Below, piece by piece: positions 28,701 to 31,700 of a DNA stretch of 64,000 bases; the first letter of the stretch is position 1, and each line of letters begins with the position of its first letter. The notes beneath the pieces are model-generated. The model saw only the letters and a list, made by a program, of their open reading frames with translations, did no database searches and was not told the origin of the DNA. This DNA is from Pseudomonas graminis (GTDB lineage: Bacteria > Pseudomonadota > Gammaproteobacteria > Pseudomonadales > Pseudomonadaceae), in NCBI RefSeq assembly GCF_002093745.1, contig NZ_MTSB01000003.1:1-64000 (forward strand). The letters are read 5' to 3'. A program made the position numbers and the translations under genes.

Positions 28701-31700
28701 GGGCGAGCTGGAAACAGCCCTTGCCAGCCTGTGGCAGACCTTGCTGAACGTCCCGCAGGTGGGTCGCGAAGATCAGTTTTTCGAGTTGGGCGGGCATTCG
28801 TTGCTGGCCATTCAACTGGTTTCCCTGATCCGCAAGCAACTGTCCATCGAGCTGGACCTGGCACAACTGTTCGCGCATCCGACACTGGCCGACATGGCAA
28901 AAGTCGCGGCACTGGCCGGCAAAAGCAGCCTGCCGGACATCACGCCGGTGGACCGTGGTTCAGACCTGCCCCTGTCTTTCGCTCAGCAGCGGTTGTGGTT
29001 TCTGGCGCAGATGGACGGCGCCAGCACGGCGTACCACATGCCTGCTGGGTTGCGTTTGCACGGCCTGCTTGACCGCTCGGCATTGCAGGGCGCACTTGAC
29101 CAGGTGGTGGCTCGTCACGAGGCGTTGCGCACTCGCTTCGTACGGCATGCGCACTTGCACGCCGTGCAACATATCGATGCTCAGGACATCGGTTTCAGCC
29201 TGAGGCACGTCGACCTGCAGGACCAGGCTGAGGCCGGGCAGCAACTTCAGGCGCTGTTGCGCGAAGAAGCGCAGGCCCCCTTCGATCTGGCGCAGGGTCC
29301 GCTGGCACGCGGCACGCTGATCCGTCTGGGGGAAACCGAACACGTCTTGCTGGTGACGCTGCACCACATCATCTCGGACGGCTGGTCAATCGGCGTGCTG
29401 ACCCGTGAAGTTGCAGCGCTGTACGAGGCGTTCAGCCAAGGCCTCGCCGACCCGTTGCCGCCGCTGACCCTGCAATATGCCGACTACGCCGCCTGGCAAA
29501 GACACTGGCTCAACGGCGACGTACTGGATAAACAGAGCCGTTACTGGCAAGCGACGCTGGCAGACGCGCCGGCACAGCTGGACCTGCCCACCGACCGCCC
29601 GCGCCCGGCCGAACAGGATTACCGCGGTGCCACCCTGCCGGTGGCGTTCGACGAAGACCTGACCCGAGACCTCAAGGCCTTGGCCAAGCGGCACGGGGTC
29701 ACGCTGTACATGACCGTGCTCAGCGCCTGGGCCGCGCTGCTCAGCCGTCTTTCCGGTCAGCAGGACGTGGTGATCGGCTCGCCTATGGCCAACCGCACGC
29801 GTAGCGAAGTCGAGCCCCTGATCGGCTTCTTCGTCAACACGCTGGCGATCCGCATCGACACCTCGGCGCAGCCCAGCGTCGAAACACTGCTGAGCCGGGT
29901 CAAGGCGCAAGTGCTCGCCGCGCAGGCGCATCAGGATCTGCCGTTCGAACAGGTCGTCGAAATCGTCAATCCGCAGCGCAGTCTGTCCCACAGCCCGCTG
30001 TTCCAGGCCGTACTCAGTTGGCAGGACGCGGGAATCAGCCAGGCGGCGCTGGGCGCTCTGACGCTGGAAGACCTTCATGTTCTGAACGACATCTCCAAAT
30101 TCGATGTGTCGTTGAATCTGGGGGAGGCGCAGGGCCGTTTGCTGGGCAGCCTCGAATACGCCACGGCGCTGTTCGACGAAGCCACGGCGCAACGTTACCT
30201 CGGCTACCTGGAACGCATCCTGCGGGCCATGACCGCCGATGAACAGTGCGTGCTGGACGGCATCGAGCTGCTCGACTCCAGCGAGCGCCAGCGTTTGCTG
30301 CAGGATCTGAATGAAACGCGCGAGCCCTACCCTCATGGCCTGACTATTCATCAGTTATTCGAGCACCAGGCCGGCATTCGTGGTCACGCGCTGGCCCTGG
30401 CGTTCGAAGATCAGCGCCTGAGTTACAGCGAACTGAACCGCCAGGCCAACCGCCTTGCGCATTACCTGATCGGTCTCGGCGTACAACCCGATGACAAGGT
30501 CGCGATCTGCGCAGAACGCAGCACCGACATGGTGGTGGGCCTGTTGGCCATCCTCAAAGCGGGCGCGGGCTACGTGCCCGTGGACCCGGCGTACCCGGCC
30601 GAGCGCATCGCTTACCTGCTCGAAGACAGCGCGCCTGCCGTGGTTCTGGCGCAAGACGCCACCTTGGCAGTGCTGTCGGCGGTCTCGGCACCGCTGGTCA
30701 ACCTGGATCAGCCTGTGTGGCAGGACCAATCCGACCTGAATCCTCAACGAGAGGCCTTGAATTCGGGCCATCTGGCGTACGTGATCTACACCTCCGGTTC
30801 CACCGGGCTGCCCAAAGGCGTGATGATCGAACACGGTAACGTCACCCGGCTGTTTGCCTCGACCCGTGAATGGTTCGAGTTCGGTGCCGATGACGTCTGG
30901 GCCTTGTTTCACTCTTTCGCGTTCGACTTCTCCGTCTGGGAAATCTGGGGCGCCTTGCTGCACGGCGGTACGCTGCTGCTGGTGCCGCAACTCGTAACAC
31001 GCTCGCCCCAGGCCTGCTATGAGTTGCTGTGTGAAAGCGGCGTCACGGTACTGAACCAGACCCCCAGCGCGTTCCGCCAACTGATCAACGCCCAAGGCGA
31101 AAACCCGCGCCCGCATGCTTTACGTCAGGTGATCTTCGGCGGTGAAGCGCTGGACACCCGCATCCTCAAACCGTGGTATGCACGCCCGCTCAATGCCGAC
31201 ACCCAACTGTTCAACATGTACGGCATTACTGAGACCACCGTACACGTTACGTGCTACCCGTTGAGCGAAACCGACGTCAACGGCGGCGTCAGCCCGATTG
31301 GTAAGCGTATTCCGGATTTGCGCCTTTACGTGCTGGATGCCTACGGGCAGCCGGTGCCACCGGGAGTGACCGGCGAGCTGTACGTCGGCGGTGCCGGCGT
31401 GGCGCGGGGTTATCTGAACCGTGCAGAGCTGAACGCCGAACGCTTTTTGAGCGACCCGTTTGCCCCGACGCCAGATGCCCGGATGTACCGCACCGGCGAC
31501 CTGGCGCGCTGGACCAGCGACGACAGCCTGATTTACCTGGGCCGTAACGATGATCAGGTGAAGATCCGCGGCTTCCGCATCGAACTGGGCGAGATCGAGG
31601 CCAAGCTGGCCAGTCACGCCTCTGTCCATGACGTGGTGGTGATACCTCGCGAGGACGCACCCGGTGACCAGCGTTTGGTGGCGTACTTCACCGCCGCAGA

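What the first reader, a model, noticed from the sequence alone, without database searches (positions are those of the whole stretch)
30770..31515. A-subdomain gene conversion between the peptin and mycin synthetases
About 740 bp of the sypA module-1 A domain (5472-6210, minus) and of the mycin module-2 A domain (30770-31515) are roughly 96% identical by hand count, with long perfect stretches, and identity drops abruptly at both ends. The block runs from the A3 motif to about A7 and so contains the whole specificity pocket. In known mycins position 2 is Ser, Dab or Orn, while peptins begin with Thr-derived Dhb, so the likely donor is sypA and the likely consequence is a change of mycin residue 2 to Thr. 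This would be a natural example of A-core swapping between two NRPSs in one island.
Basis: partly seen in the sequence, partly recalled or inferred. Interest (0 to 1): 0.88.

Follow-up and report, generated by a model that had tools for sequence, protein, structure and literature searches.

The report
Peptin specificity core copied into mycin
In this Pseudomonas, the piece of one lipopeptide-making enzyme that chooses an amino acid has been overwritten by a copy from the neighbouring enzyme, a clean example of a known way in which bacteria change their peptide products.

Summary
Confirmed and refined. Window 30769-31598 (+), in the second A domain of the mycin synthetase (SyrE1), is 95.2% identical over 830 ungapped bp to 6208-5379 (-), in the first A domain of the peptin synthetase (SypA). 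Identity falls from 95% to 37% at the left edge and from 89% to 52% at the right. The tract runs from motif A3 to motif A8. Outside it, module 2 groups with module 2 of Pseudomonas cichorii-group mycin synthetases; inside it, with the genome's own SypA module 1; topology tests reject the alternative in each segment. SypA module 1 aligns unbroken to its orthologues, so SypA is donor and SyrE1 recipient. Both cores read DFWNIGMVH (Thr, by recall). Of 22 other mycin loci read, 12 have a Dab code at module 2, 8 an Orn-type code and 2 a Thr code; those two took Thr separately, from their own mycin module 7. A second SyrE1 record has the same block. Best reading: recombination without net crossover that probably changed residue 2 from Dab to Thr. 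New member of a known kind (A-core exchange). No peptide was measured.

The parts
30769..31598 (+). Recipient tract: A3-A8 core of SyrE1 module 2, code DFWNIGMVH (Thr by recall)
5379..6208 (-). Donor tract: A3-A8 core of SypA module 1, code DFWNIGMVH
   Evidence: one unbroken alignment of the module to G391 (77.1%) and G018 (76.6%) orthologues
30292..30768 (+). Native N-terminal part of the module 2 A domain (A1-A2 side) with C-A linker side
   Evidence: Groups with cichorii-group module 2, support 0.936; AU test rejects grouping with SypA module 1
31599..32170 (+). Native small A subdomain (A9-A10) and T domain of module 2
   Evidence: Groups with cichorii-group module 2, support 0.981; AU test
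25747..41919 (+). Mycin synthetase first gene (SyrE1-like), 5390 aa, five A domains: codes DVWHLSLID, DFWNIGMVH, DLEHNTTVS, DAESVGTIV, DLEHNTTVS
   Evidence: (first 2698 aa only)
41900..55528 (+). Mycin synthetase second gene (SyrE2-like), 4542 aa; A domains at 45206, 48419 and 51719
   Evidence: not scanned with Pfam
2..8131 (-). Peptin synthetase (SypA-like), first 2710 aa, cut by the contig start
34025..34868 (+). Module 3 core, Dab code; 80.8% to module 5 core; P. cichorii relatives have an Asp-type core here
40472..41315 (+). Module 5 core, Dab code
20539..22389 (+). Free-standing A-T protein, SyrB1-like (name recalled), code DFWSVGMVH
22356..23348 (+). PhyH-family protein, SyrB2-like halogenase by position (name recalled)

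Best explanation
The A3-A8 core of mycin synthetase module 2 was overwritten by a copy of the A3-A8 core of SypA module 1 of the same lineage, by homologous recombination (gene conversion) between divergently transcribed copies 24.6 kb apart, with no net crossover. Shown: the mosaic, its edges in conserved motifs, which copy gave and which received, and the Thr code. Inferred: that the conserved A3 and A8 stretches seeded the exchange; that residue 2 changed from Dab to Thr; that keeping the native C domain, C-A linker, small A subdomain and T domain kept the module working. Predicted peptide from codes (assignments recalled): Ser-Thr-Dab-Lys-Dab-Thr-Dhb-Asp-Thr, where P. cichorii MAFF 302096 reads pseudomycin-like Ser-Dab-Asp-Lys-Dab-Thr-Dhb-Asp, with the last Thr from SyrB1.
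For: 830 bp at 95.2% with sharp edges. dS 0.16 inside, 1.68 and 1.58 outside. Flanks of module 2 with cichorii-group module 2 (0.936, 0.981), core sister to own SypA module 1 (0.994) inside the SypA clade (same with 53 sequences). AU tests: core rejects the module 2 grouping (p about 4e-101), flanks reject the SypA grouping (1.7e-4, 7.7e-5). SypA module 1 aligns unbroken to orthologues at 77%. Same divergent arrangement of the two genes in G391, so no lasting inversion. Second SyrE1 record (38 of 5390 residues different) has no difference in the block. 20 of 22 other mycin loci do not have Thr at module 2.
Against: 4.8% divergence and clustered mismatches (permutation p 0.0017) mean it is neither very recent nor clearly one event. 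A single-strain donor cannot be told from the resident copy. The exact left breakpoint is open within 30769 to about 30870. The species-mate G057 lacks both clusters, so the event may have happened in another host. No product was measured.
Confidence: 0.8

Rival explanations
1. The same exchange, but the donor was SypA module 1 of another strain or sister species brought in by transfer, not the resident copy.
For: 4.8% divergence; the clusters are absent from G057 of the same species, so the island is mobile or variable.
Against: Best core outside this genome is 79% in 398 genomes searched; resident copy is 95.2%.
Confidence: 0.15
2. Reverse direction: SyrE1 module 2 gave its core to SypA.
For: The two cores alone do not tell direction.
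Against: SypA module 1 aligns unbroken to orthologues inside and outside the core at 77%; the core nests in the SypA clade (0.965); 12 of 22 mycin loci, among them all five cichorii-group loci read (one contig twice), have Dab at module 2.
Confidence: 0.02
3. Shared Thr specificity alone: two Thr cores kept alike by constraint.
For: Two other genomes (G289, G181) also have a Thr code at module 2.
Against: Other Thr-type cores of this genome are only 56-75% identical to it; silent sites match too (dS 0.16); G289 and G181 cores belong with mycin module 7.
Confidence: 0.01
4. Assembly error that joined two A domains.
For: Draft genome in 42 contigs with many similar A domains.
Against: The two copies differ at 40 sites, the frame is open, and a second SyrE1 record listed on a 1,064,144-bp contig has the same block.
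Confidence: 0.02

Closest known systems
Natural Acore exchange in NRPS genes (Baunach et al. 2021, PMC8097286; passages seen)
   Same: Exchange of the variable A core with native C-A linker and Asub.
   Different: Those passages do not treat a mycin-peptin pair; here the donor is the adjacent cluster.
wolG1 from wolG2 and a rimosamide-type gene in Streptomyces (PMC9205934; passages seen)
   Same: Intragenomic A-core recombination between two NRPS clusters that changes specificity.
   Different: There A2 to A5/A6, after gene duplication, donor about 3 Mb away, with biochemical proof; here A3 to A8, no gene duplication seen, donor 24.6 kb away, no biochemistry.
A-domain breakpoint hotspots in Pseudomonas (Calcott et al. 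2020, PMC7486941; passages seen)
   Different: A statistical survey; this is one resolved event. Their laboratory partial-A exchanges in PvdD gave no visible product.
mcyA conversion in microcystin (PMC3640908; passages seen)
   Same: Conversion of an A domain, with the same residue reached independently.
   Different: Across cyanobacterial genera; one of the routes there is point mutation.
virginiafactin Ser5 module from the jessenipeptin cluster (as told in PMC9948697 section 18, and PMC8097286 passages)
   Same: Transfer between co-hosted lipopeptide clusters of one Pseudomonas.
   Different: There a C-A didomain or larger unit; here the A core only.

Membership tests
Natural A-core exchange by intragenomic recombination | Both breakpoints inside one A domain, enclosing the specificity pocket | tested here: met
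   A3 at 30787 to A8 ending 31599; edges at 30769 and 31598
Natural A-core exchange by intragenomic recombination | C-A linker and small A subdomain remain native | tested here: met
   Segment trees and AU tests
Natural A-core exchange by intragenomic recombination | Donor identifiable in the same genome | tested here: met
   SypA module 1, 95.2%; best elsewhere 79% in 398 genomes. A donor in another strain is not excluded
Natural A-core exchange by intragenomic recombination | Predicted substrate differs from orthologous modules | tested here: met
   Thr code against Dab in 12 and Orn-type in 8 of 22 other loci; Thr in 2; code meanings recalled
Natural A-core exchange by intragenomic recombination | Changed residue in the product | not testable with these tools
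   No mass spectrometry or enzyme assay
Mycin synthetase (SyrE1/SyrE2/SyrB1 layout) | Starter C domain orthologous to other mycin synthetases | tested here: met
   84-86% to P. cichorii and P. capsici, 72-74% to P. frederiksbergensis-type loci; the name mycin rests on recall and on PMC9769872 section 7
Mycin synthetase (SyrE1/SyrE2/SyrB1 layout) | Two synthetase genes of 5 and 4 modules, last module without A domain, plus a separate A-T protein | tested here: inconclusive
   Five A domains in the first gene, three found in the second, A-T protein at 20539; the end of the second gene was not scanned for domains
Peptin synthetase (SypA) | Starter C domain followed by a Thr-type (Dhb) first module | tested here: met
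   second module code DVQYIAHV (Pro by recall). Full length not testable, the contig ends

The most novel reading that the evidence does not exclude
Mycin module 2 is a recurrent conversion acceptor that has gone to Thr at least twice from different donors: SypA module 1 here, SyrE2 module 7 in the G289/G181 lineage. In the window the two tracts still exchange sequence (the mismatch-free patches), and since they are inverted copies on either side of the start regions of both synthetases, a crossover between them would invert the 24.6 kb between and make hybrid synthetases, possibly in part of a population.
Probability: 0.15. Interest if true: 0.62.

Novelty: new member of a known kind. Interest (0 to 1): 0.42.

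Why it matters
It is a traceable case of a specificity core re-used between two co-hosted lipopeptide clusters, with donor, recipient, breakpoints and direction readable. A survey of non-phytopathogenic Pseudomonas with two lipopeptide systems found no indication of recent module acquisition from a co-hosted cluster (PMC9948697 section 18). This genome, which may lie outside that survey's sample, shows that it happens at sub-domain scale. The boundaries, with C domain, linker, Asub and T left native, are field evidence on where A domains can recombine, the more so because laboratory partial-A exchanges in PvdD failed (PMC7486941 passages). A second lineage that reached Thr2 from another donor hints at selection on that residue.

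Tried and rejected
Rejected: reverse direction, constraint on Thr cores, assembly error (see rivals). Led nowhere: phage collection search with the block (no match); the protein search with the SyrE1 module 2 region, which scored only the 1080 candidates sharing most words, listed 120, and was dominated by long multi-module NRPSs because bits add up over domains; it was useful only for P0041. The first paper searches were broad; PMC11205049 passages held nothing on mycin residues. The module 3 history is mixed (core with module 5; upstream segment near modules 7 and 4; downstream segment with other mycin module 3s at low resolution), so I name no donor for it. GARD, RDP and GENECONV were not run; sliding identity, segment trees, AU tests and dS stand in for them. 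No structure was predicted.

Rows dropped before counts: mycin loci L070, L072 and L073 lie on contigs of the same length as G391, G349 and G074 and were taken as the same records, so 25 loci give 22. One search (398 genomes drawn from the genus) gave 24 genomes besides this one with a starter domain of 60% or more; 19 were fetched, and G133, G355, G100, G260 and G194, where the contig end is near, were not read. Second, lower-ranking starter-domain loci in G010, G162, G316 and G000:C10, and those under 50%, were not counted. For the AU tests 4 of 53 sequences (own SyrB1, module 6 and two other own Thr domains) were left out, and rows with 40% or more gaps were dropped by rule; the number left was not printed. 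In one search matches over 99.9% and 300 bp between the first and second gene pieces were filtered out as overlap of fetched pieces.

Full report
WHAT IS THERE. The window is bases 1-64000 of contig C33 (409,433 bp) of a 5.69 Mb Pseudomonas genome. A peptin synthetase gene (SypA-like) runs leftward from 8131 off the contig start. A mycin synthetase runs rightward as two genes, 25747-41919 and 41900-55528. Between them lie LysE-type, RND-type efflux and ABC transporter genes, a TauD-family protein, a free-standing A-T protein (SyrB1-like), a PhyH-family protein, an alpha/beta hydrolase and an aspartyl hydroxylase-like protein (ten proteins scanned; Syr names recalled). The layout is like the three-gene mycin clusters (syrE1, syrE2, syrB1) told of in PMC9769872 section 7.

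THE BLOCK. Window 30769-31598 (+) matches 6208-5379 (-) over 830 ungapped bp with 40 mismatches, 95.2%. In 60-bp windows of the same register, identity is 0.18-0.38 to the left, 0.83-1.00 inside, and 0.20-0.57 to the right. The tract begins at motif A3 (YTSGSTG at 30787) and ends in the last codon of motif A8 (GEIE). The left breakpoint is not exact: at the mismatches 30781, 30783 and 30826 mycin module 2 carries the state usual in its module 2 relatives, and A3 is conserved in every sequence compared there, so the crossover may lie from 30769 to about 30870.

MORE THAN CONSERVATION. Synonymous divergence between the two domains is 0.16 in the core and 1.68 and 1.58 in the flanks. Of the 40 differences 29 are synonymous. 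Five other Thr-type domains of the same genome are 56-75% identical to the core. In 398 Pseudomonas genomes searched with the 830 bp (own included), the best match outside this genome is 79% (G018), then 78% (G391).

DIRECTION. Orthologous mycin synthetases were taken from 19 genomes and 6 named records, and the start of the peptin locus from 19 genomes. SypA module 1 aligns in one piece to G391 (77.1%) and G018 (76.6%), with 90-bp windows from 0.60 to 0.83 and no step at the block. In segment trees the flanks of mycin module 2 join the cichorii-group module 2 (support 0.936 and 0.981), while the core is sister to the window's SypA module 1 (0.994) inside the SypA module 1 clade (0.965 with G018 and G391) (93 sequences; same picture with 53 sequences). 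AU tests: in the core, grouping with cichorii module 2 is rejected (p about 4e-101); in the flanks, grouping with SypA module 1 is rejected (1.7e-4 and 7.7e-5). So SypA gave and SyrE1 received.

CONSEQUENCE. The nine-residue code read from the alignment is DFWNIGMVH in both domains. By recall this is the standard Thr code; it is also the code at modules 6 and 7 of the nine second-gene pieces read, where mycins are printed with Thr and Thr/Dhb (PMC6433849 passages; syringomycin has Phe at 6). Mycin module 2 in 22 other non-redundant loci: 12 DLEHNTTVS (Dab, recalled), 8 DMEAMGAVN or DMENMGAVN (Orn-type, recalled), 2 DFWNIGMVH. Printed residues at position 2 are Dab (nunamycin), Orn (brasmycin prediction) and Ser (syringomycin) (PMC6433849 passages). 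In one targeted literature search (14 papers listed) and the passages I read from four of them I saw no mycin with Thr at 2; syringomycin-2 differs from syringomycin at 2, 4 and 7 but the text seen does not name the residues, so a printed Thr2 mycin is not excluded.

A PARALLEL CASE. The two exceptions, G289 and G181, also read Thr at module 2, but their A domain is a copy of their own mycin module 7: in G289 1459 bp at 99.45%; in G181 an alignment of 1813 bp at 90.1%, with 60-bp windows of 0.87-1.00 from 580 bp before to 800 bp after the A3 region. Their downstream flank groups with Orn-type module 2 (0.961), and the upstream flank of G289 aligns to Orn-type G362 module 2 at 82%. So Thr2 arose at least twice, from two donors. 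The 99.45% inside G289, against 93.7% between the module 2 regions of G289 and G181, suggests conversion after those lineages parted.

HOW UNUSUAL. Segments of at least 85% over at least 200 bp between the SyrE1 piece and the first 8-10 kb of the peptin locus: this genome yes, 0 of the 16 other genomes where I held both, so 1 of 17. Within the SyrE1 piece such repeats occur in 11 of 19 genomes. Between SyrE1 module 3 and SyrE2 module 8 they occur in 6 of 9 genomes for which I held both genes (G391, G289, G181, G362, G145, G288). Conversion among mycin modules is common, between mycin and peptin rare, in this sample. Later peptin modules were not compared.

WHAT DOES NOT FIT NEATLY. Mismatches are clustered: none in 30877-31019 and 31271-31446, 19 in 31020-31270, 15 in 31488-31598. 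A largest gap as long as that seen came up in 0.17% of 20,000 permutations that kept third against other codon positions. SypA module 1 against G391 shows about 20% difference in the mismatch-free stretches, so these are not conserved. Patchy later conversion would explain it; not proven. By majority of three SypA relatives 19 differences look derived in mycin module 2, 14 in SypA and 7 are undecided.

IS THE ASSEMBLY RIGHT. A second SyrE1 record, P0041, in a two-member cluster listed on a contig of 1,064,144 bp, differs at 38 of 5390 residues and at none in the block. Its DNA and its SypA were not available.

COMPARED WITH WHAT IS KNOWN. Exchange of the A core with native C-A linker and Asub is the main pattern in Baunach et al. 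2021 (PMC8097286, passages). Hotspots beside the pocket are told of for Pseudomonas by Calcott et al. 2020 (PMC7486941, passages). A two-cluster, one-genome case with enzyme assays is wolG1 in Streptomyces (PMC9205934, passages). Convergent conversion is known in mcyA (PMC3640908, passages). PMC9948697 section 18 found no recent acquisition from a co-hosted cluster in non-phytopathogenic dual producers, and cites the virginiafactin Ser5 module as a reported case from a co-hosted cluster. The window is a well-resolved new member of a known kind, of moderate interest.

Noticed in passing
33465-34560 (module 3) and 40472-41315 (module 5): A second specificity change in the same gene: module 3 reads Dab here where G391 has an Asp-type core; the module 3 and 5 cores are 80.8% identical over the same A3-A8 stretch.
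   Followed up: partly
L117/L147 (G289) and L118/L148 (G181): Independent replacement of the mycin module 2 A domain by a copy of mycin module 7, 99.45% over 1459 bp in G289.
   Followed up: yes
L106/L146, L117/L147, L118/L148, L111/L149, L114/L150, L119/L152: Modules 3 and 8 (both Asp-type) share 1.9-2.3 kb at 87-93% in 6 of 9 genomes, as if kept alike by conversion.
   Followed up: partly
L147:13837-16078; similar repeats in L148, L150 and L151 near 13.8-14.9 kb: Tandem array of a 134-bp unit, 16.7 copies, with a REP-like palindrome (likeness recalled), near the end of or behind syrE2; no such array in the window.
   Followed up: no
whole island, window 1-64000: G057, a genome of the same species in one contig, has no match to the SyrE1 starter domain, the SypA starter domain or the block at the cut-offs used, so the island varies within the species.
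   Followed up: no
5379-6208 and 30769-31598: The tracts form an 830-bp, 95% inverted repeat around 24,560 bp that hold the start regions of both synthetases; a crossover would invert that segment.
   Followed up: no
G000:C10:32178-33521 (L124) and G000:C33:126214-127554 (end of it in L144): Further lipopeptide-type starter domains in the same genome: one 65% like that of SyrE1 with a Thr-coded first module, one 44% like that of SypA.
   Followed up: no
L006 and L007 (G000:C18:47584-48418 and 44234-45068): Two A-domain matches 3,350 bp apart with the same score and identity to the query, which suggests a recently duplicated module in another NRPS gene.
   Followed up: no
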